Shown here one piece after another: positions 53,931 through 64,000 of a DNA stretch of 64,000 bases. The DNA comes from Ralstonia sp. A12 (GTDB lineage: Bacteria; Pseudomonadota; Gammaproteobacteria; Burkholderiales; Burkholderiaceae). The translations under genes were made by a program, and so were the position numbers. The notes beneath the pieces are model-generated. The model was not told the origin of the DNA and searched no databases. It saw only the letters and a list, made by a program, of their open reading frames with translations. How positions within the stretch are numbered: the stretch's first letter is position 1; every line of letters starts with the position of its first letter. Location: NCBI RefSeq assembly GCF_000801955.1, contig NZ_JSZO01000002.1, forward strand, positions 186,001-250,000. The letters are read 5' to 3'.

Positions 53931-55091
53931 ATGCACATCATCGACATCCGCGAACAGGCCATTCCAGTTTCCCGATATGACGATCCGTCCATTCCATCGG
54001 GCGGGCTGACGACCAGCCTCGTGGCCGTCACCACCGATGTGATGCGAGACGGAAAACCGGTGGTCGGTTACGGCTATGCATCGGTCGGCCGGTTTGCGCA
54101 GGGTGGCTTGATTCGCGAGCGCTTTGCGCCGCGCCTGCTGCGCGCATCACCCGGCAGCCTGGCGGATGAAACGGGCACGAACCTCGACCCGTTCCGTGCG
54201 TGGCACACGATGATGGCGGGCGAGAAACCCGGCGGCCACGGTGAGCGCTGCGTGGCGGTGGGCACACTCGATATGGCGATCTGGGATGCCGCTGCAAAGA
54301 TCGCTGGTGTGCCGCTGTACGCCTTCCTTGCACAGCGGCTCGACGGGGCGGCGCAGCTGCGTGTGCGCGTGTATGCCGGTGGCGGGTATCGCTACCCGCA
54401 TGACGATCTAGCGCGCTTGGCTGACGAGATGCGCCGCTGTGTGGATCTCGGCTTCACCCACGCGAAGATCAAGATCGGCGCCGCGCCGTTGGACGTGGAT
54501 TGCCAACGCATTGAAGTGGCGGCCGCGCAGTTGTCCGGTACCCGCCATCTCGCCGTGGATGCCATGAACCTGTATGACCAGGCCACCGCGCTGCAGGCCG
54601 CAATCGTGCTGGAGCCCTACGCGCTCTGGTGGTTTGAGGACATATGCGACCCGCTGGACTTCACCACGCACGCCAAGGTGGCCGAGGTGTACGCACCACC
54701 TATTGCAGCAGGCGAAGCGCTGTTCTCGCAGGCTGAAGCACGGTTGCTCGACCAGTACGGCGGCCTGCGCAGCGCACGCGACGTTTTGGTGTTCGATCCC
54801 GTGCATTGCTATGGCGTGCCGGGCTACCTGCGCATCATTGAGACCATGACCGCGCATGGCTGGCCGCGTCAGGCGTTCTGGCCGCATGGCGGACATCTCT
54901 TTGGGCTGCATCTGGTGGCGGCACTTGGTCTGGGCGGTGCGGAGGTCAGCCCGTTTGCGTTTGCACCGTTTCGCGGGCTGGCCGATGGTGCGCGCATCGA
55001 GGCCGGCTACGCAGGCTTGCCGCAGGCGCCGGGCATCGGCTTTGAGACACACGCCGAGGCATGGCGCACGTTCCGGCAGGCGTTCGTGTGA
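53931..55091 (+). CDS. Enolase-superfamily dehydratase, D-tartrate dehydratase-like
   Basis: A 386-residue mandelate-racemase-type enzyme. The N-terminal capping stretch GGLTTSLVAVTTDVMRDGKP and GEKPGGHGERCVAVGTLDMA strongly recall bacterial D-tartrate dehydratase (TarD). The barrel carries the K-x-K motif (HAKIKIGAA), metal ligands in LAVDAMN, WFEDICDP and AAGEALFS, and the base His in FWPHGGHLFG. Product would be oxaloacetate from D-tartrate. Another acid sugar is possible. Separate from the tartrate dehydrogenase/DctA module by 17 kb but consistent with it. Confidence 0.75.
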   Translation: MHIIDIREQAIPVSRYDDPSIPSGGLTTSLVAVTTDVMRDGKPVVGYGYASVGRFAQGGLIRERFAPRLLRASPGSLADETGTNLDPFRAWHTMMAGEKPGGHGERCVAVGTLDMAIWDAAAKIAGVPLYAFLAQRLDGAAQLRVRVYAGGGYRYPHDDLARLADEMRRCVDLGFTHAKIKIGAAPLDVDCQRIEVAAAQLSGTRHLAVDAMNLYDQATALQAAIVLEPYALWWFEDICDPLDFTTHAKVAEVYAPPIAAGEALFSQAEARLLDQYGGLRSARDVLVFDPVHCYGVPGYLRIIETMTAHGWPRQAFWPHGGHLFGLHLVAALGLGGAEVSPFAFAPFRGLADGARIEAGYAGLPQAPGIGFETHAEAWRTFRQAFV

Positions 55092-55136
55092 ATGCGCGTC
55101 CACTGGCGACACGTTCGAGTTGCCACCGCCTTGCAA

Positions 55137-56015
55137 TCAGACAGAGGCGTGGCCGGTTGCGTGCAGTTCGAACCCGTGCCGGAACCAGTCCAAGCGGGTA
55201 TGCGCCGCGTCCAGCGCATCCGTTGCGCCGGCACGCGCTTGGGCCATATGCTGGGCCAGGCGATCGCGCATTGCTGTGTTGTCGAGCAGGGCAATGCATT
55301 GCTCACAGGTTTGCGGACCGGCCAGCGTGGCGGCATCTCTGCCAAGCAAGGCCATGCCTGCGAGGTCCGGGTTGTAGTTGGCCGATTCCAGCAGAGCGGA
55401 TTCGGCGTCATATAGACGATCTAAGTTGCCGGCGCTGGCATAGCTCTGCAGCAGGACCTGCAGGTCCCCCGCATCTTTGGGGTCCTCCAGGCCACGGTCC
55501 TTCCAGGCGATTAGCTTGAGCACGGCAAGCCCAGCCAACGATGCCACGCGCATGCTGCGTCCGGGCGCAAACTCAACTTCGACTGCGGCCCGCCAGGCAT
55601 CTGCATAGCCAGCAACATTCATCATCACAGCCATGTCGGGCGGCCATTTGATGGTGGCTGGCGGTTGTTCGATACCACCGAATGGGATGAGGTCTATTGG
55701 CCTGCCGATCGTGTTGTCGCTCGTGCGGTAGAGCAGCCTGTGGACGATGTTGGCAGTGGAGTCGAAGCGACCATTGGCCAGCAGGCGCTGCTTGATGTCT
55801 TCGAAGTGCGGCCAATGCTCTACGGCAACGGCGAAATCCACGTCGAGCGTGGCACGTCCAGTTTCGATCCCGAACACATGTGTCAGCAGAATGTCGCGCG
55901 CCGTGGCGCCCACCACGAAGATGGGCAGTGCCAGTGGTACAGCCACGTCGTGTATGGCACTGAGGATGTCCTGGGTTGAGTGGTCCAGTGGGCGGTCAGA
56001 GCGAATCGAGTACAC
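55137..56015 (-). CDS. Nucleotidyltransferase toxin-like protein (AbiEii family)
   Basis: A 292-residue protein resembling the nucleotidyltransferase toxin of type IV (AbiE) systems. VVGATARDILLTHVFG followed by ATLDVDFAVAVEHW has the G-x-x-A-R-D and D-x-D-F metal/nucleotide pattern, and VLKLIAWKDRGLEDPKDAGD matches the family's K-x-x-A-W-x-x-R segment with its acidic tail. The start is GTG at 56015, overlapping the upstream antitoxin-like gene by 20 nt, so the two are coupled. Predicted to modify tRNA or nucleotides; the target is unknown. Confidence 0.8.
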   Translation of the reverse strand: MYSIRSDRPLDHSTQDILSAIHDVAVPLALPIFVVGATARDILLTHVFGIETGRATLDVDFAVAVEHWPHFEDIKQRLLANGRFDSTANIVHRLLYRTSDNTIGRPIDLIPFGGIEQPPATIKWPPDMAVMMNVAGYADAWRAAVEVEFAPGRSMRVASLAGLAVLKLIAWKDRGLEDPKDAGDLQVLLQSYASAGNLDRLYDAESALLESANYNPDLAGMALLGRDAATLAGPQTCEQCIALLDNTAMRDRLAQHMAQARAGATDALDAAHTRLDWFRHGFELHATGHASV

Positions 56016-57072
56016 GAGCGATGCTTTTTTCTCGAATGAGGTTGGCGGTTTCTAGATTGCGCGAGTCCATCGTGGCGATGAGATCCGCATAAACCAGGAT
56101 CGGTGGTACAAGACTTTCCCGGTCGGTATGGCCGGTCGGCGGTCGCCAGAAGGTCTCCAGCAGTTCGATAGGGCCATCCGCGCTAGGCTGAAGACGGTAC
56201 TTTGTGACCAGGTGGCGCAGCGTGTCTCGCATGGCAGGCGGATCAATATAGAGCGTCTGCGTGGCGGGTTTGAGATAGTCGGTCATGCGGGCGGCTGCGA
56301 CTTCGCTGCCCCATTGCGCGCTCAGTGGTGTCAGGTCGGCCAGGCTGGCGTCTTGCCACCAGTTTGGGTCGTTTGCCTGGAAGCGGCGCGGATGCAGCTT
56401 TGGGCGTAGTATCGTTGGGTAGCCGGTAACCCATTCGTCGAGCATTCGTGTTGGTGCTGCCAGACGACGGCCCCTGGCTGATTCAACCAGTAGACCGCGA
56501 GTGGTCAGGTCCCGCAGCACAGCGCCTACCGAACCGAGCGCAATGCCAGCGGCTTCTGCCATCTCCCGATATGGCGCCTGTATGAGAGCAGGCTCACAGA
56601 GCAGGGCGAAGACCATGCGCCAGGTTGTGGCATTGCCCGCGCTGCGCGTGGACGTCTGTGCCGGAACGTCTAGCGGCTTGCGTCCGCTCACGAATACGTA
56701 CAGGCCATCGGCCTTGAGGTAGGCATTGCCTGCGGTATCAATGAACTGCAGGCCAAGCTGCCGGCTGTGCTCTGCCAGTTGTGGGCTGAGATACGGTGTT
56801 ACCAGCAGACCAGTGTCGAGGTGTCGGGCCAGTTGTGTGCGGACTAGGGCCAGTGCGGAGGCTCGGTCCATCGTGTGCTTGCATTCCACGAGGTAACGAT
56901 GTGTCTGGCCAGCGACCCTTAGGTCGACAACGGCGTCGGACTTTGCGCGGGAACTGGTGCGAGCCCCGGTCGCGACAATCTTGCCGTCAATGCCGGCGAG
57001 TTCGCCCAGGGCTTTCAGCGCAGTATCGAGCACTTCACGCTCGTGATGCTGGGGGTCGTATCGGGTCGCCAC
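55996..57072 (-). CDS. AbiEi-like antitoxin/regulator with PD-(D/E)XK-like N-terminus
   Basis: A 358-residue protein preceding the AbiEii-like toxin. The N-terminal 110 residues have a restriction-endonuclease-fold look: D50 in AVVDLRVAG and E63-x-K65 in YLVECKHTM, then GLQFIDTAGNAYLKADGLYV. A winged helix follows (PYREMAEAAGIALGSVGAVL, RDLTTRGLLVESARGRR), then a C-terminal region typical of AbiEi antitoxins. The GTG at 57072 is the first possible start after an in-frame stop. Likely represses its own promoter through the two palindromes upstream. Nuclease activity is not shown. Confidence 0.75.
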   Translation of the reverse strand: MATRYDPQHHEREVLDTALKALGELAGIDGKIVATGARTSSRAKSDAVVDLRVAGQTHRYLVECKHTMDRASALALVRTQLARHLDTGLLVTPYLSPQLAEHSRQLGLQFIDTAGNAYLKADGLYVFVSGRKPLDVPAQTSTRSAGNATTWRMVFALLCEPALIQAPYREMAEAAGIALGSVGAVLRDLTTRGLLVESARGRRLAAPTRMLDEWVTGYPTILRPKLHPRRFQANDPNWWQDASLADLTPLSAQWGSEVAAARMTDYLKPATQTLYIDPPAMRDTLRHLVTKYRLQPSADGPIELLETFWRPPTGHTDRESLVPPILVYADLIATMDSRNLETANLIREKSIARVLDSL

Positions 57073-57605: not shown

Positions 57606-58361
57606 ATGGGCGCTCGCATTTTATTGACGGAAAACCGGATAACGTCGTGGCGCGCAGAACTGTTGCGCGAGTTGAACACCCTGGACGATGCCGATGCTGC
57701 ATTTCGTAGCCTGCACACGGCCGTCACCCTGTTGGGCTTCGACTATTACGCCTATGCCCTGCGTGCGGCGATCCCGATCACGCGCTTCAACACCGTGGCG
57801 TGGAGCAATTACCCCGAGCGCTGGCGTGAGACCTATTCGGCGCGCGGCTATGCCGCCATCGACCCGGTGCTGCAGTTCGGCCAGCGCTGCGTGAAGCCCA
57901 TGCTGTGGCCTGGCATCAGTGATCCGAACGAGCCGTTCTGGGTGGATGCGCGCGCGCATGGGTTGAACCACGGGTGGTCGCAGACCATGCGAGATCATCG
58001 CGGCATCTTCGGCACCTTCAGCCTGGCGCGCAACGCCGAGCCCATCACCACCGATGAGTTGGCCGCCATCGAGCCCGAGATGATCTGGCTGGGCCAGCTT
58101 GCCCACGCCACCATCAGCAACCTGATGGCGAGCAAGGTGCTGCCCGATGCCGCCGCGCGCCTCAAAGACGTCGAGCGCCAGACGCTGCACTGGACGGCCG
58201 AGGGCAAGACCGTGGCCGAGGTGGCGGCCATCCTGGAGATGACCGAGCGCAACGTGAGCTTTCATATCCAGAACGCCATCACCAAGCTCAACGCGGCCAA
58301 CAAGACGCATGCGGTGGTGAAGGCGGCGATGCTGGGGTTGATTCCGGCCACGGCAGCCTGA
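57606..58361 (+). CDS. LuxR-family quorum-sensing receptor (AHL-binding type)
   Basis: A 251-residue receptor-regulator. The N-terminal autoinducer-binding domain keeps the residues that contact acyl-homoserine lactones in LuxR/TraR: Trp and Tyr in PERWRETYSARGY, Asp-Pro in AAIDPVLQFG, Trp in KPMLWPG and the Gly in GIFGTFSLAR. The C-terminal GerE helix-turn-helix is ERQTLHWTAEGKTVAEVAAI. No luxI gene is in the window, so it may act as a solo or the synthase may lie elsewhere. It is convergent (3-nt gap) with the acyltransferase gene. Resembles SolR-like receptors of Ralstonia. Confidence 0.9.
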   Translation: MGARILLTENRITSWRAELLRELNTLDDADAAFRSLHTAVTLLGFDYYAYALRAAIPITRFNTVAWSNYPERWRETYSARGYAAIDPVLQFGQRCVKPMLWPGISDPNEPFWVDARAHGLNHGWSQTMRDHRGIFGTFSLARNAEPITTDELAAIEPEMIWLGQLAHATISNLMASKVLPDAAARLKDVERQTLHWTAEGKTVAEVAAILEMTERNVSFHIQNAITKLNAANKTHAVVKAAMLGLIPATAA

Positions 58362-58364
58362 AGC

Positions 58365-59528
58365 TCAGGCGCGGCTGCCGTCGTCTGCACGGCCGACCAA
58401 CGCGCGCGCGGTGTGCTGCCGTGCGTTGCCGGCCCAGCGGCGCATGATCGGCCGCTCGACCAGCGCGTACAGCGCCCACGCCAGCAGCAGCGCCACGCCA
58501 AACTCCGCAGCAATCACGCCCAGCGCAACGGGCGTGGCAAACGCCTGTCCGTGCAGCAGCGCACGCGCGCCGTACAGCACCTCCAGGTGGACCATGTAGA
58601 ACGCGAACGACACCTCGCCCAGCCACACCATCGTGCGCGAGGCGAGCAGCGTGGGCGCATCGGCCACATCCGTTGCCGCCACGGCGGTGATGAGCAGTGC
58701 AATCGGCACGATGATCACCGCGTTCAGGCTGTACTGAAACGGCACCACGCGCGCCGCTGCATAGCCCACCGCCATGAAGAGCAACGTGGGCAGCATGCCG
58801 AGCCTGATCCACTGCCCGGTCATGAGGATGCGCGCCATCAGCATGCCGAGCACGAATTCGAACAGCCGCAACGGCGGAAAGAAGTACGCCAGCCAGAAGC
58901 GTAACTCGGGCAGGGGCCAACCAGGCGCGATTGGCGCATCCGGGGTGAGCAGCGTGATGAGCCCTTGAGCTGCCAGCAGCGCCGCCACGGTGCCCGCCGC
59001 CCACCACCACAACCGCGCTGCCCGTATGCGCTGCACCAGTGGCAGGATCAGCGGAAACAGCATGTAGAACAGCAGCTCACTGCAGAGCGACCACGACACC
59101 GCATTCACGCCGCGCAGGATGTCGTCTTCCGGCACCCACGCATGCAGCAGGAACAGGTTGGGCAGCCATACCGCCGCCCGTGTGCCGGGCGCGACCAGCA
59201 GAATCATGGCCACGGCCCACGTGACGATGTGGTTGGGGTAGATCTTGAGCAGGCGCCGTTTGAGGAAGGCCGACGTGGTATCGGTACTGCGCGCAGACCA
59301 TGTCAGCACGAACCCGCTCAGCACGAAGAAGAACGACACCCCCACGCGCCCGCCCACGTTGAACAGGTGGTTGTAGACCGTGGCCCACTGCACATCGGCA
59401 AACGGGTTGAACACCACGATCTTCATGAGCGACCCGTGGTACAGGAAGACCAGCAAGGCCGCCAGAAAGCGCAGCCCGGTGAGCGACGGCAGCCGGCTGG
59501 CCGCAGGCATGCGGAGCGTGAGCACCAT
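58365..59528 (-). CDS. Membrane acyltransferase (acyltransferase 3 family)
   Basis: A 387-residue inner-membrane protein with about 10 hydrophobic segments. LPSLTGLRFLAALLVFLYHG with the conserved R and H, and GGRVGVSFFFVLSGFVLTWS are the acyltransferase-3 signature; FLKRRLLKIYPNHIVTW is also family-typical. Such enzymes O-acylate sugars, lipids or secondary metabolites. It is the last gene of the minus-strand cluster, 18 nt after the monooxygenase. Acceptor unknown. Confidence 0.87.
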   Translation of the reverse strand: MVLTLRMPAASRLPSLTGLRFLAALLVFLYHGSLMKIVVFNPFADVQWATVYNHLFNVGGRVGVSFFFVLSGFVLTWSARSTDTTSAFLKRRLLKIYPNHIVTWAVAMILLVAPGTRAAVWLPNLFLLHAWVPEDDILRGVNAVSWSLCSELLFYMLFPLILPLVQRIRAARLWWWAAGTVAALLAAQGLITLLTPDAPIAPGWPLPELRFWLAYFFPPLRLFEFVLGMLMARILMTGQWIRLGMLPTLLFMAVGYAAARVVPFQYSLNAVIIVPIALLITAVAATDVADAPTLLASRTMVWLGEVSFAFYMVHLEVLYGARALLHGQAFATPVALGVIAAEFGVALLLAWALYALVERPIMRRWAGNARQHTARALVGRADDGSRA

Positions 59529-59546
59529 GAAGGTCTCCTGTGCCGG

Positions 59547-60713
59547 TCAGGCGGTAGCGACTTCGGTTTCCGGGCGGGCCTTTGCAGTGGAGATGCGCGT
59601 GCGCAGCCCGGTCAGGAAGCGCGGCAGCTCGTCATGCAGCAGGTGTTGGAGCGATGGCGCACCAAACGGCCACTCCGTGGTGGCCAGGTCGGGCGAGCGC
59701 ACCAGCAGGCGACTGAGGTAGCGCGTGACCGCCAGGTTGCGCGCGACGGCGCCCAGGCGCGGCAGCTCATAGGCGTCCAGATCGCGGGCGAGGATGGCGC
59801 GCGCCAGCACCGCCGCATCTTCAATGCCGAGGTTCATGTTGGTGCCGCCGATCGGGCTGAATTGGTGCCACGCATCACCGGCAAAGAACACGCGCCCCAC
59901 GCGTGCGCGGCTGGCAATGCGGTGGCCGAATGCGCTGTGCGTGATCCAGTGCAGGTGTTGCACGTGGGCCGTGATGGGCGTCATGTCGCGGATGATGCGT
60001 TCAATGAACGCGGCATCGAAACCGCTCTGCGGGTCTTCACCCGGGAAGGACGCGATCACGCGGTAGCTGCCGCCCGGGATCGGCACGATCATCAGGTAGC
60101 CATCTACACCGCAGAAGCAGTGCATCTCGTCGTTGGCCAGCGGCAGCGCGTCGAAGCTCACGTCTGCCACGACAAAGTAGCCCGCATACATGACCTGGTC
60201 GACGGGTACCTCGAGCAGGCGACGTGCCGTGCTGTTGCCGCCATCGCACGCGATGACGTGGTCGGCAAAGATGCGCTCTTCGGTGCCATCCAGATGGGTA
60301 CAGGTGGCGACCACGCCGGTGGGCGTCTCCTCCAGCGCCTGCAGTTCCAGCCCCTGGCGGATCGACACGCCCAGCTCGGAAATCCGCCGATACAGCGCGC
60401 GCTCGATCACGTCTTGTGTGAGGTGGAAGAAGTGCGGACGCGCAATGTCGAGCTGGTGGAAGTTGATGTCGGCAAAGTACGTACGGCGCCGGTACAGGTT
60501 CATGCGCGGCACGCGCAGGCCCAGCGCATCCAGCTGCGCGCCAATGCCAAGCTGGTCGAACACGGCCAGGCTCGCCTGGTTGACGGCAATGCCGCGCGGC
60601 AGGGTCGACAGCTCCAGCCGCTTGTCGATGATCTGCACCGCCTCGCCCTGCTGGGCGAGCAGCCCGGCCAGCGTCATCCCCACGGGGCCGCACCCGACGA
60701 TCAGTAGGCTCAT
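59547..60713 (-). CDS. FAD-dependent aromatic-type monooxygenase (UbiH/PheA/TetX-like)
   Basis: A 388-residue flavoprotein hydroxylase. The FAD GxGxxG motif is LLIVGCGPVGMTLAGLLAQQ; VIACDGGNSTARRLL is the DG motif that binds FAD/NAD(P)H; FFAGDAWHQFSPIGG is the GD motif. GGAG ribosome site before the ATG. Lies 10 nt downstream of the hydrolase gene. Hydroxylates or epoxidises an aromatic or polyketide-like substrate (inference). Confidence 0.9.
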   Translation of the reverse strand: MSLLIVGCGPVGMTLAGLLAQQGEAVQIIDKRLELSTLPRGIAVNQASLAVFDQLGIGAQLDALGLRVPRMNLYRRRTYFADINFHQLDIARPHFFHLTQDVIERALYRRISELGVSIRQGLELQALEETPTGVVATCTHLDGTEERIFADHVIACDGGNSTARRLLEVPVDQVMYAGYFVVADVSFDALPLANDEMHCFCGVDGYLMIVPIPGGSYRVIASFPGEDPQSGFDAAFIERIIRDMTPITAHVQHLHWITHSAFGHRIASRARVGRVFFAGDAWHQFSPIGGTNMNLGIEDAAVLARAILARDLDAYELPRLGAVARNLAVTRYLSRLLVRSPDLATTEWPFGAPSLQHLLHDELPRFLTGLRTRISTAKARPETEVATA

Positions 60714-60723
60714 GGCCGGCTCC

Positions 60724-61557
60724 TTACAGCGTCTTGGAAAATTCGAGGATCAGCTTGCCGCACACCTCGGGCGCTTCTAGGTGCGGTACGTGTCCCACGT
60801 CTTCCAGGATGTGCACGTTGGCGGGCTGGATGCGCGGCACGCGGGCCTGCAGCTTGTCGTAGTAGGCGTTGTCGATGAAGGCGTCGTTTTTGCCGCCGAT
60901 GTACAGGAAGGGCACCTTGCTGCCCGACAGAATGGCCAGCTCATCCAGCCAGCCTTGCGTCTTGAGGTGGATTGCGAACTGCTCGCGAAAGTTGCCGTCG
61001 GATTCCTTGATGTCCGCCAGCATGCGTTTGTAGACTTCGGTGCCGGCTTGCGAGACGTCGAGGTAGGCACGCGTGAGCGCATCGGCCTCGTCGCCCACCA
61101 GGTGGTTCTTGAAGGCGAGTTCCTTGGGCGCCTCGGGGCGAAAGTTGGAGAACGCATCTTCGCGGCTGACGGCATGCACGCCGGCGATCGACACGAGGCC
61201 GAGCAGGTTCGGATCCTTGAACAGCGATTGCGTTGCGATGTTGGCGCCCACGCTGTTGCCTGCGGCAATGATCTCGTGCAGCGACAGGCGGTGGCGGAAC
61301 TCTTCAAACAAGGTGCGCAGGCCGATCATGCTGTACTGAAAGCCGAAGCGCGCCACGTCGATGTGGTCCGACAGGCCGTGGCCCGGAAAGTCCAGCGCGA
61401 TCAGGTTGAACTGGTCGCCCAGAATCGGTTCCAGATCGGCGAAAGAAGCGGCGGTGGACGCCGTGCCGTGCAGAAAGACGATGGTGGGCGCGTTGGCCTT
61501 GCCACCTTGCAGATAGTGCAGCTTGCCGAAATCGAAATTCAGGAATCTGGATTGCAT
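60724..61557 (-). CDS. Alpha/beta hydrolase (MhpC-like)
   Basis: A 277-residue cytosolic hydrolase. IVFLHGTASTAASFADLEPI is the oxyanion region, AAGNSVGANIATQSL the nucleophile elbow (Ser), and HILEDVGHVPHLEAPE the catalytic His region; an acid is likely in GGKNDAFID. The ATG at 61557 overlaps the MFS stop codon (TGATG); a GTG at 61560 is also in frame. Middle gene of the cluster. Possible roles are ester or C-C bond hydrolysis or thioesterase-like release. Confidence 0.88.
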   Translation of the reverse strand: MQSRFLNFDFGKLHYLQGGKANAPTIVFLHGTASTAASFADLEPILGDQFNLIALDFPGHGLSDHIDVARFGFQYSMIGLRTLFEEFRHRLSLHEIIAAGNSVGANIATQSLFKDPNLLGLVSIAGVHAVSREDAFSNFRPEAPKELAFKNHLVGDEADALTRAYLDVSQAGTEVYKRMLADIKESDGNFREQFAIHLKTQGWLDELAILSGSKVPFLYIGGKNDAFIDNAYYDKLQARVPRIQPANVHILEDVGHVPHLEAPEVCGKLILEFSKTL

Positions 61558-63122
61558 CACAGGGCTCCTTCGAGGTGTTCGTTGCGGGATTGGGGGGTGT
61601 CGGTGGATTCGGCAGGGCGCGTTTCCTTGCGCTTGAACAGCGCAACCGACAGGCCGATGCCGATGGCGGCCAGCAGCGCGTTGAATGCCATCAACGCACG
61701 CATGGCGGGCACGTAGCTCGTGTTGACGAGATCGCGCACGGTATCGATCGGGTGATCGGCAAACGTGCCTGCGACGTTGACCAGGTTCTGGCTGGCATTG
61801 ACGAGGCCTTGCAGGGCGCGCAACTGCTCGGGTGTGAACGTGGCGGCTGCGCTGGCGATATGGCGTGCGAGTTCAAGTTCCCCCACCTTGCTCAGGATCA
61901 GCCCTGACACCGCCACCCCGAACATTGCGCCCACCATCGACAGCGTGAAGAACAGGCCGATGGCCGTGCCCGTGTGCTTGGGCGACACCTGCGACGTCGC
62001 GCCGTTGATGGTGGCGGTGGTGAGCGTTCCGTTGGACAGCCCGAAGCTCACCAGCCCGATCACGAACAGCACGATGGACAAGTCGACACGCAGCGTGAGG
62101 AACGCTGCGCAGCTCACCAGCAGCAACGTCATGCCCGTGAGTGTGGGCAGCTTGTAGCCGTGGCGGTCGATGACCTTGCCGGTAATCGGCCCCACCACGA
62201 AGATGCACGCCGTCATGCACAGCACCCACAGCCCAGCACGCACCTTCGAGTAGTTCAGGATGTTCTGCATGAACAACGGCAGCACGAACAGGAAGCTCGC
62301 CATCACGAAGTTGAAGATGATGCGGATGCCCACCACCGTCAGGTAGGTGCCGTTCTTCAGCAGCGACAGATTGATGAGCGGTGCCTCCACACGCAGGCTG
62401 CGGCGCACGAACAGCACGGTCGAGATGGCGCCCACCCCTGCCAGCGCGCCGATCTGCGCCCACGTGAGCGTGGCCAGCGCGTTGGACAGCACGATCAGGC
62501 AGCCCAGCCCCAGCAGGTATAGCGGCACGCCCACCACGTCGAGCTTGCGAGCACTCAGCTCGTTCGCGTCGTCACGGTCGACGAACGCGGCGGTCAGCAG
62601 CAGCGACAGCAACCCCAGCGGCACGTTGATGAGAAAGATCATCTCCCACCCGAACGCCTGCAGGATGAAGCCGCCCAGCGGCGGCCCCGCCGCCAGCCCG
62701 ATCCCGGTAATGGTGACGGCCACGCCCGTTGCCAGGCCCTTCTGCTCGGGCGGAAACGCCTTGCCGATCAGGATGAGCGCCAGCCCCAGCGTGGCTGAGA
62801 AGCCGATGCCCTGAACAAAGCGCGCCGCGATGATGGCCTCGATGCTGTGTGCAAACGCCCCGATGTAGAGCGACGACAGCACGAACAGCAGCCCGCCCGC
62901 CATGAACACACGCTTCTTGCCGTAGCGGTCGGCCAGCACGCCCGACAGACAGAAGAACGCCGCCGCAGCCGCCAGGTAACTGACGATCACCAGCTGAATC
63001 TGCTCGATGCTGGCGTTGAAATCTTTGGAGAATTCCGCCAGCGCCAGATTGACGATGGTCAGGTCCAGGTTGATCAGCAACAGGTAGATGCCGATCGAAA
63101 ACAGCACGATCCATTTCTTCAT
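61557..63122 (-). CDS. MFS exporter, DHA2 (EmrB/QacA) family
   Basis: A 521-residue 14-helix drug/metabolite:H+ antiporter. LDLTIVNLALAEFSKDF (motif D1), GVLADRYGKKRVFMAGGLLF (motif A) and GLAAGPPLGGFILQAFGWEM (motif C, antiporter) are visible. Likely exports the cluster's product and confers self-resistance (inference). The ATG at 63122 starts the membrane-anchored part; the frame is open to 63149. Its stop overlaps the hydrolase ATG by one base. Confidence 0.9.
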   Translation of the reverse strand: MKKWIVLFSIGIYLLLINLDLTIVNLALAEFSKDFNASIEQIQLVIVSYLAAAAAFFCLSGVLADRYGKKRVFMAGGLLFVLSSLYIGAFAHSIEAIIAARFVQGIGFSATLGLALILIGKAFPPEQKGLATGVAVTITGIGLAAGPPLGGFILQAFGWEMIFLINVPLGLLSLLLTAAFVDRDDANELSARKLDVVGVPLYLLGLGCLIVLSNALATLTWAQIGALAGVGAISTVLFVRRSLRVEAPLINLSLLKNGTYLTVVGIRIIFNFVMASFLFVLPLFMQNILNYSKVRAGLWVLCMTACIFVVGPITGKVIDRHGYKLPTLTGMTLLLVSCAAFLTLRVDLSIVLFVIGLVSFGLSNGTLTTATINGATSQVSPKHTGTAIGLFFTLSMVGAMFGVAVSGLILSKVGELELARHIASAAATFTPEQLRALQGLVNASQNLVNVAGTFADHPIDTVRDLVNTSYVPAMRALMAFNALLAAIGIGLSVALFKRKETRPAESTDTPQSRNEHLEGAL

Positions 63123-63188
63123 GAGATGGCCTCTTGCACCGGCAGACACCGCGCGGGCATCTGCCGGTCAACGGGTGGCTGGGCGGGG

Positions 63189-64000
63189 TCAGTGGAACAT
63201 GCGCCAGCTGTCTTCGTGGCGCACCAGGAAGGCGCCGATCGTGCGGCGCACGGCCTGGCATTGCTCCACGGCATGCATGACGCGCGTGTTGAGCACGTGC
63301 AGCTGGCCGGGTTTGCCATGCACCACCAGCTTGGGCACGTCTTCAAGCTGGGGGATGCTTTGATTGGCAAAGAACTCGGCCATCAGTGTGTGCAATTGGG
63401 CGAAGTCCTGCGGGCGGTAGTCCCAGAACACGAGGCCCGTGCCTTCATCGGAATCCGCCACCGACAGGAACACCGAGATCTGGTTCTTCAGCTCGGAGTA
63501 GTTCTCGCCAATCGGCCAGTTGCCCGGGTCGCGCGAGAAGTGGATGGCGTCGCAATGCGGCGGCACGCTGTACACGCCTTCCTTCTTGGGCTGGAACTCG
63601 CGTTTGGAGGTGAGCGGAAACTCCGCCCACGTGCCTACCTGCACGGTGTCAATGTGCAGCGCATCGTGAATGAGCCGCGCGAAGGCGGTGTTGCGCAGTT
63701 GCCCGTTGAAGCGGCCGGCATAGGCAAAGTAGTCGGCCAGCCCGACCACGAGCTTTTCGTTTTCCAGAAACTGCATCGGCCCGACGGCTACGCCGGTGTT
63801 GGCCACGCCCGAGAGCGAGCGGTGCGGAATCACCTCGGGGTAGGCCGGGTCGGCCCACCACGTATCGAGTTGTTCGGGCTGCACCACATCCAGCAACACG
63901 GCAATCGCATCACCATCGCGCACCAGCGCCACGGCTTCATCGATGTGCAGGTCACGGGTTTCGGCGGGTGCGCCAAAGCGGTGGATTTCGGAGCGATACG
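63189..64000 (-). CDS. Fe(II)/2-oxoglutarate oxygenase-like protein, 5' end outside window
   Basis: The frame is open past the right edge, so the GTG at 63932 is not the true start; about 269 C-terminal residues are visible. H-x-D in VPPHCDAIHFSRDPGNWP and the distal His and Arg in LHVLNTRVMHAVEQC-QAVRRT fit an iron-dependent 2OG oxygenase. Visible N-terminal part reads RSEIHRFGAPAETRDLHIDE. It is 66 nt upstream of the MFS exporter and so the first visible gene of the cluster. Substrate unknown. Confidence 0.72.
   Translation of the reverse strand, partial: YRSEIHRFGAPAETRDLHIDEAVALVRDGDAIAVLLDVVQPEQLDTWWADPAYPEVIPHRSLSGVANTGVAVGPMQFLENEKLVVGLADYFAYAGRFNGQLRNTAFARLIHDALHIDTVQVGTWAEFPLTSKREFQPKKEGVYSVPPHCDAIHFSRDPGNWPIGENYSELKNQISVFLSVADSDEGTGLVFWDYRPQDFAQLHTLMAEFFANQSIPQLEDVPKLVVHGKPGQLHVLNTRVMHAVEQCQAVRRTIGAFLVRHEDSWRMFH

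What the first reader, a model, noticed from the sequence alone, without database searches (positions are those of the whole stretch)
57606..64000. LuxR-type receptor tail-to-tail with a five-gene tailoring and export cluster
Directly seen: an AHL-receptor-type LuxR gene ends 3 nt from a minus-strand run of acyltransferase, FAD monooxygenase, alpha/beta hydrolase, DHA2 exporter and 2OG-oxygenase-like genes. Spacing is 10-66 nt, and the hydrolase and exporter overlap by a base. Known: oxygenases, an acyltransferase and an efflux pump in one operon near a LuxR gene are typical of small specialised-metabolite loci. Inference: a quorum-gated pathway for a small oxidised, acylated molecule, without an obvious polyketide or peptide synthase in view. 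The core enzyme may lie beyond the right edge.
Basis: partly seen in the sequence, partly recalled or inferred. Interest (0 to 1): 0.72.

Follow-up and report, generated by a model that had tools for sequence, protein, structure and literature searches.

The report
Ralstonia butenolide gene island beside LuxR
This Ralstonia genome carries a 13-gene island, wedged between a LuxR-type sensor gene and the gene that directly follows that sensor in relatives, which is predicted to make and export a small lactone (butenolide-like) molecule; the sensor likely predates the island, so the two may be only neighbours.

Summary
In detail: LuxR (57606-58361) ends 3 nt from a compact minus-strand run of acyltransferase, FAD monooxygenase, alpha/beta hydrolase, DHA2 exporter and 2OG oxygenase. 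The core enzymes lie just past 64000: a SnoaL-like gene, then a divergent operon of AfsA hotdog protein, HAD phosphatase, ACP, two KASIII, a second indolepyruvate:ferredoxin oxidoreductase (frame-shifted here) and a thioesterase. These 13 genes form one 14.9-kb island. In 10 of 13 Ralstonia genomes without it, the same LuxR gene sits at most 18 nt from the EAL/GGDEF gene that follows the island here; an eleventh keeps a LuxR remnant. So LuxR looks like a resident solo receptor: no luxI was found in 16 genomes, while the same search rings in other genera. It shows no change of pace linked to the island. Quorum gating is therefore not shown, although LuxR could have been co-opted: the island carries no recognisable regulator. 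The likely chemistry is AfsA-type condensation of a KASIII-made beta-ketoacyl-ACP with DHAP, HAD dephosphorylation, oxidation, acylation and export. AfsA has a HAD gene within 4 kb on the same strand in 46 of 57 related loci. This is a new variant of AfsA/butyrolactone-type clusters; the product is unknown.

The parts
57606..58361 (+). luxR-type gene (251 aa), resident neighbour of the island, not part of it by comparison
   Evidence: Autoind_bind and GerE; orthologue in 10 of 13 island-free genus genomes beside the EAL gene
58365..59528 (-). Acyltransferase 3 family membrane acyltransferase; left end of the island
   Evidence: PF01757 93.3 bits, cut-off 31
59547..60713 (-). FAD-dependent monooxygenase
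   Evidence: PF01494 179.9 bits; homologue in 19 of 57 AfsA loci
60724..61557 (-). Alpha/beta hydrolase; best solved relative is 4g5x (AidH, an AHL lactonase), 71 bits, so the resemblance is general
   Evidence: GxSxG present
61557..63122 (-). DHA2-type MFS exporter
   Evidence: PF07690 198.4 bits; EmrB subfamily model 208.3, below its cut-off of 230.2
63189..64000 (-). SadA-like Fe(II)/2OG oxygenase (gene continues to window-equivalent 64010); the other island genes lie beyond the window: SnoaL-like 64099-64482 (-), AfsA 65006-65713, HAD 65729-66454, ACP 66471-66707, KASIII-1 66708-67772, KASIII-2 67811-68785, IOR in two frames 68758-69282 and 69267-72461, thioesterase to 73276 (all +)
   Evidence: 3w20 match 174.4 bits, HxD...H present; genes beyond the edge (window-equivalent = L004 position + 62000)

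Best explanation
This is one 13-gene, 14.9-kb gene island that lies between a luxR gene and an EAL/GGDEF gene in a Ralstonia genome and is predicted to make and export a modified butenolide (a five-membered lactone). Shown: two arms diverge from one 523-nt region, and the block is absent from the same site in relatives. Inferred: the extra indolepyruvate-type oxidoreductase would turn an aromatic or branched 2-oxo acid into an acyl-CoA starter; the KASIII enzymes would extend it to a beta-ketoacyl-ACP on the small ACP; the AfsA hotdog protein would condense that with dihydroxyacetone phosphate (DHAP) into a phosphorylated butenolide; the HAD enzyme would remove the phosphate. The SnoaL-like, FAD, 2OG and hydrolase enzymes would remodel ring or chain, the membrane acyltransferase would add an acyl group, and the DHA2 pump would export the product. 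Control by LuxR is possible but untested; LuxR likely predates the island.
For: Block structure: LuxR and EAL stops are at most 18 nt apart in 10 of 13 island-free genus genomes, with collinear flanks; G005 has all 13 genes in the same order on one contig; the island IOR is a second copy present only in the three island genomes. Chemistry: AfsA PF03756 66.8 bits, cut-off 24; HAD-IB TIGR01490 143.4, cut-off 98.3; two KASIII with Cys and His motifs; ACP with DSL motif. A HAD homologue lies within 4 kb on the same strand in 46 of 57 AfsA loci and in 0 of 16 non-random control loci; AfsA, HAD, FMO and ABH together in 8 of 57. Precedent: an AfsA-like domain of Burkholderia gladioli condenses 3-ketothioesters with DHAP in vitro (PMC7756379, passages).
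Against: The protein is far from the ScbA/BarX equivalog (27.6 bits, cut-off 200) and its model matches single-hotdog FabZ and thioesterase folds over about half its length. No classical A-factor reductase was recognised among the 13 genes. 8 of 57 AfsA loci show no HAD, and of seven further family loci opened only three show HAD. The ACP scores just under its Pfam cut-off (20.4, cut-off 20.8). The IOR gene is frame-shifted in this genome. No product is known.
Confidence: 0.55

Rival explanations
1. The resident LuxR has been co-opted as the island's regulator, so production is gated by AHLs of neighbours or by the island's own lactone.
For: No regulator was recognised among the 13 genes; LuxR keeps the AHL-pocket residues that I recall; an intact LuxR and a LuxI lie near AfsA-HAD-FMO-ABH sets in Moritella L039 and Marinifaba L058; a 25-bp palindrome, unique in the genome, lies in the divergent promoter region.
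Against: LuxR stands in the same place without the island in 10 of 13 genomes; no luxI found in 16 genus genomes; non-identity of LuxR relative to EAL is about 3.8-fold both within island-free genomes and between groups; lux-box-like sites are not in excess, 15 against 14.5 expected; LuxR-type genes were detected in only 2 of 57 AfsA loci.
Confidence: 0.25
2. The AfsA-like hotdog protein is not a butenolide synthase but a dehydratase- or thioesterase-like enzyme acting on ACP intermediates, and the island makes another kind of short oxidised acyl product, perhaps an amino-acid derivative.
For: Closest folds are small hotdog thioesterases and FabZ; weak match to the ScbA/BarX equivalog; the 2OG protein's best solved relative, SadA, hydroxylates N-substituted amino acids.
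Against: AfsA Pfam score well above cut-off; EAARQ invariant across 32 aligned homologues; frequent HAD partner, which fits a phosphorylated intermediate; no amide-forming enzyme was recognised in the island.
Confidence: 0.22
3. An ordinary catabolic operon for an aromatic acid with an export pump.
For: FAD monooxygenase, alpha/beta hydrolase and IOR families also occur in aromatic catabolism.
Against: ACP, two KASIII, AfsA and acyltransferase 3 are not catabolic parts; resident IOR is already present in all 16 genus genomes searched.
Confidence: 0.05

Closest known systems
Streptomyces gamma-butyrolactone, furan and butenolide pathways (AfsA, MmfL, SabA with phosphatase SabP)
   Same: AfsA-family protein plus a phosphatase, acting on a beta-ketoacyl thioester and DHAP (PMC7756379, passages)
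   Different: Here AfsA is a distant single-hotdog-like form with its own ACP and two KASIII, IOR, SadA-like oxygenase, acyltransferase and pump; no ArpA-type receptor and no classical reductase recognised
Gladiostatin / gladiofungin PKS release domain of Burkholderia gladioli
   Same: AfsA-like domain in the same order of bacteria, shown in vitro to use DHAP (PMC7756379, passages; the gladiofungin paper PMC7756420 seen only in the listing)
   Different: There the AfsA domain ends a trans-AT PKS; here no modular PKS, a free-standing AfsA with discrete KASIII and ACP
A-factor-like cluster of Pseudomonas Ps664
   Same: AfsA-like protein with a hydrolase and an MFS transporter, without the classical reductase (PMC8719888, passages)
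   Different: It has a P450; the passage names no KASIII, ACP or IOR; product unknown too
SadA (3w20/3w21), Burkholderia ambifaria
   Same: Closest solved relative of the 2OG protein, HxD...H and the Arg/Thr region aligned
   Different: About 174 bits only; substrate here unknown and no N-acyl amino acid maker recognised in the island

Membership tests
AfsA-type butyrolactone/butenolide clusters | AfsA hotdog domain PF03756 | tested here: met
   66.8 bits, cut-off 24
AfsA-type butyrolactone/butenolide clusters | Membership of the ScbA/BarX equivalog NF041195 | tested here: not met
   27.6 bits, cut-off 200
AfsA-type butyrolactone/butenolide clusters | Two hotdog domains as in canonical AfsA (recalled) | tested here: inconclusive
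   Model shows one hotdog half and an alpha/beta N-terminal half; matches cover about 120-180 columns
AfsA-type butyrolactone/butenolide clusters | Phosphatase partner | tested here: met
   HAD-IB gene 15 nt downstream with DxDET motif; within 4 kb in 46 of 57 AfsA loci
AfsA-type butyrolactone/butenolide clusters | Reductase of the classical A-factor pathway | tested here: not met
   None recognised among the 13 genes by Pfam
AfsA-type butyrolactone/butenolide clusters | Condensation of a beta-ketoacyl thioester with DHAP | not testable with these tools
   Needs an enzyme assay
LuxI/LuxR quorum-sensing pair | LuxR with autoinducer-binding and GerE domains | tested here: met
   103.8 and 51.6 bits
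LuxI/LuxR quorum-sensing pair | luxI in the genome | tested here: not met
   PF00765: 0 of 1 own genome, 0 of 16 genus genomes; positive control: 30 of 60 family genomes match, 24 over the cut-off
LuxI/LuxR quorum-sensing pair | LuxR regulates the adjacent cluster | not testable with these tools
   Lux-box-like scan not in excess; no expression data
WelO5-type halogenases | Score over family cut-off and no Asp in the iron-binding HxD motif (recalled) | tested here: not met
   24.7 bits, cut-off 27; HCD present
Tetronate clusters (KASIII + ACP + FkbH-type HAD; recalled) | FkbH-type HAD glyceryl-ACP synthase | tested here: not met
   The HAD is HAD-IB (TIGR01490 143.4 bits, cut-off 98.3), related to histidinol-phosphatase models

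The most novel reading that the evidence does not exclude
A Gram-negative hybrid signalling circuit: an AfsA-made butenolide island landed beside a LuxR solo that now reads the island's own lactone (or AHLs) and switches the island on, with the AidH-like hydrolase trimming the signal. LuxI and LuxR genes flanking AfsA-HAD-FMO-ABH sets in Moritella and Marinifaba would be parallel meetings of Streptomyces-type and LuxR-type lactone signalling.
Probability: 0.1. Interest if true: 0.82.

Novelty: new variant of a known kind. Interest (0 to 1): 0.5.

Why it matters
Free-standing AfsA-type enzymes with discrete KASIII and ACP in Proteobacteria look like a little-explored source of lactone metabolites or signals, and this locus gives a compact, testable pathway. 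The clean empty site also shows that a LuxR gene lying 3 nt from a biosynthetic cluster need not have come with it, a common inference in genome mining.

Tried and rejected
Rejected: (1) LuxR acquired with the island as its dedicated regulator. (2) Halogenase reading of the 2OG protein. (3) Tetronate-type cluster. (4) An excess of lux-box-like sites: 15 in L004 against 14.5 expected; two of them (2590, 2981) lie in the divergent region, each with 2 mismatches. (5) Plasmid carriage: 18 PLSDB records match AfsA, all under 60% identity, 17 Streptomyces and 1 Ruegeria. (6) The 2OG gene as a marker of this pathway: 10 of 398 family genomes have a homologue, seven of them in genus g12; in the five g12 loci opened (L104-L108) no AfsA was found. 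(7) Further family AfsA loci: the profile matches 22 of 398 family genomes; of seven opened (L125-L131), HAD is seen in three and KASIII-1 in one, and none repeats the Ralstonia set. (8) Literature: the listings showed no paper whose title or abstract start describes an AfsA cluster in Ralstonia; only the open PMC library was searched, so this does not show that none exists. MIBiG and antiSMASH could not be run. Strain-level Burkholderia loci (B. vietnamiensis, B. ambifaria, B. multivorans AfsA 57-58%) could not be opened; a B. ambifaria KASIII-1 homologue at 71% exists. A search for ScbA active-site residues gave one paper without them.

Rows dropped or mended: the ACP query was read in the wrong frame, so its ACP rows are not used; one search has the right frame. 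Two island-free genomes without LuxR orthologue (G001, G012) were not inspected at the EAL site. L069 gave no AfsA hit by phmmer but stays in n = 57; L014 in that set is itself a Ralstonia island. The 16 control loci are not random (Ralstonia LuxR loci and SadA loci). G006 was left out of the within/between means (reported apart), and G013 has no EAL sequence there. In G013, 10 of the 13 genes were seen, over three contigs; FMO, ABH and thioesterase were not in the stretches fetched. KASIII-1 homologues: 120 of 7921 were listed.

Full report
WHAT IS THERE. The window is G000:C12:186001-250000 of a 6.10-Mb genome. The genus is Ralstonia by inference: the closest named record with this AfsA gene is Ralstonia sp. 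ASV6 (95%). The species was not assigned.

BEYOND THE EDGE. L004 is C12:248001-268000, so window-equivalent = L004 position + 62000. The 2OG gene reaches 64010. A SnoaL / limonene-epoxide-hydrolase-like gene follows (64099-64482, -). After a 523-nt divergent region comes a plus-strand operon: AfsA hotdog 65006-65713, HAD-IB phosphatase 65729-66454, ACP 66471-66707 (PP-binding 20.4 bits, cut-off 20.8), KASIII-1 66708-67772, KASIII-2 67811-68785, an indolepyruvate:ferredoxin oxidoreductase (IOR) read in two frames (68758-69282 and 69267-72461) and a thioesterase ending at 73276. Ten nt later the EAL/GGDEF gene ends at 73287 (-). Gaps within this arm are -28 to 38 nt. KASIII Cys and His motifs, HAD DxDET, 2OG HxD...H and hydrolase GxSxG are present; the Asn motif of KASIII-1 was read by eye.

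ONE ISLAND. AfsA is found in 3 of 16 genus genomes (G000, G005, G013); in 101 relatives there is one further, weak match (G045, 22% identity). G005 has all 13 genes in this order on one contig. In G013 10 of the 13 were seen, over three short contigs. Of 13 island-free genus genomes, 10 hold a LuxR orthologue (72-79% identical) with 18 nt or less between its stop and the stop of the EAL gene. One more (G002) holds a LuxR remnant 15 nt from EAL. Two (G001, G012) have no LuxR orthologue. BLASTN against the joined contig shows flanks that skip the island; on the left most also skip about 53.85-57.6 kb, which holds an enolase-family gene and an AbiEi/AbiEii pair. The island IOR is a second copy: all 16 genomes carry a resident IOR at 52-53%, and only the three island genomes carry this one. 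Gain in one clade is the simplest reading; loss elsewhere is not excluded, since no rooted test was made.

THE LUXR GENE. It has both LuxR domains, matches RhlR variants, QscR and SdiA among solved structures (the name QscR for 3szt, listed as quorum-sensing control repressor, is recalled), and keeps pocket residues that I recall for AHL receptors (WxxxY, DP, W, G). No luxI (PF00765) was found in its genome or in 16 genus genomes; the same search matched 30 of 60 family genomes, 24 over the cut-off. LuxR identity averages 89.3% within island-free genomes and 76.5% between groups; the EAL neighbour gives 97.2% and 93.8%. Non-identity is thus about 3.8 times that of EAL in both comparisons, so no burst of change is linked to the island. 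dN/dS is somewhat higher between groups for both genes (LuxR 0.15-0.20 and 0.20-0.30; EAL 0.02-0.06 and 0.06-0.07; six pairs each). Against a pure-neighbour reading: no regulator was recognised among the 13 genes, and in Moritella (L039) and Marinifaba (L058) an intact LuxR and a LuxI lie near an AfsA-HAD-FMO-ABH set. LuxR control stays open but unshown.

PROMOTER REGION. A perfect 10-5-10 inverted repeat (window-equivalent 64579-64603) lies in the divergent region. It is perfect in two of three species and has one mismatch in the third; 7 of 1000 first-order resamples of the region held such a repeat. With up to 3 mismatches it is the only such site in the genome. Its binder is unknown.

CHEMISTRY (INFERRED). 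An AfsA-like domain of Burkholderia gladioli condenses 3-ketothioesters with DHAP in vitro, and phosphatases are required or proposed downstream (PMC7756379, passages). In 57 AfsA loci from genome contigs a homologue of this HAD is found in 49, in 46 within 4 kb on the same strand, and in 0 of 16 control loci; FMO in 19, ABH in 9, all with AfsA in 8; KASIII in 9. L015 repeats AfsA-HAD-ACP-KASIII-KASIII, followed by FMO, a SnoaL/hydrolase fusion, SnoaL and MFS. The AfsA model (mean pLDDT 92.4) has a hotdog half resembling FabZ and small thioesterases, and the protein is not the ScbA/BarX equivalog (27.6 bits, cut-off 200); this is the main weakness of the butenolide reading. Of seven further family loci opened, three show HAD beside AfsA. 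The 2OG protein is a SadA relative (174 bits); SadA hydroxylates C3 of N-substituted branched or aromatic L-amino acids (PMC3665795, abstract and passages). With the IOR this hints at an aromatic or branched starter, by inference only. The hydrolase's best solved relative is 4g5x (71 bits); a paper holding that code describes AidH, an AHL lactonase (PMC3532132, search listing only).

STATE OF THIS COPY. The IOR gene is split over two frames in this genome, while G005 has an open frame of 1226 codons there. Mutation or assembly error cannot be told apart here. Two further IOR copies (50-52%) exist in the genome.

VERDICT. Observation confirmed; the specialised-metabolite reading is supported and its core enzymes are found; quorum gating is not supported by comparison but not excluded. 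A new variant of AfsA-type clusters with an unknown product.

Noticed in passing
53964-57072: An enolase-family gene and an AbiEii/AbiEi type IV toxin-antitoxin pair lie upstream of LuxR; they are also present in G005 and G013, while most island-free relatives skip this stretch, so both sides of LuxR received new genes.
   Followed up: partly
L004:6758-10461 (window-equivalent 68758-72461): The island's indolepyruvate:ferredoxin oxidoreductase gene is split over two frames in this genome but open in G005.
   Followed up: partly
L004:2579-2603 (window-equivalent 64579-64603): Perfect 25-bp palindrome (10-5-10), unique in the genome, in the island's divergent promoter region; binder unknown.
   Followed up: partly
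L039:6145-8817 and L058:4480-7706: LuxR and LuxI genes lie near AfsA-HAD-FMO-ABH sets in Moritella sp. PE36 and Marinifaba aquimaris.
   Followed up: partly
L015:143-3399: A resolvase, an rve-type transposase and an AAA ATPase gene stand beside the AfsA-HAD-ACP-KASIII-KASIII cluster of a proteobacterial MAG, which hints at mobility.
   Followed up: no
L037, L038: AfsA and HAD homologues lie about 1.8 kb apart in two Bartonella records.
   Followed up: no
L104-L106: Two SadA-like 2OG oxygenase genes side by side in three genomes of genus g12, with PhyH and aminotransferase genes beside them in the one annotated, L104.
   Followed up: no
L109 (G002): LuxR survives only as a short remnant beside the EAL gene in one Ralstonia genome.
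   Followed up: no
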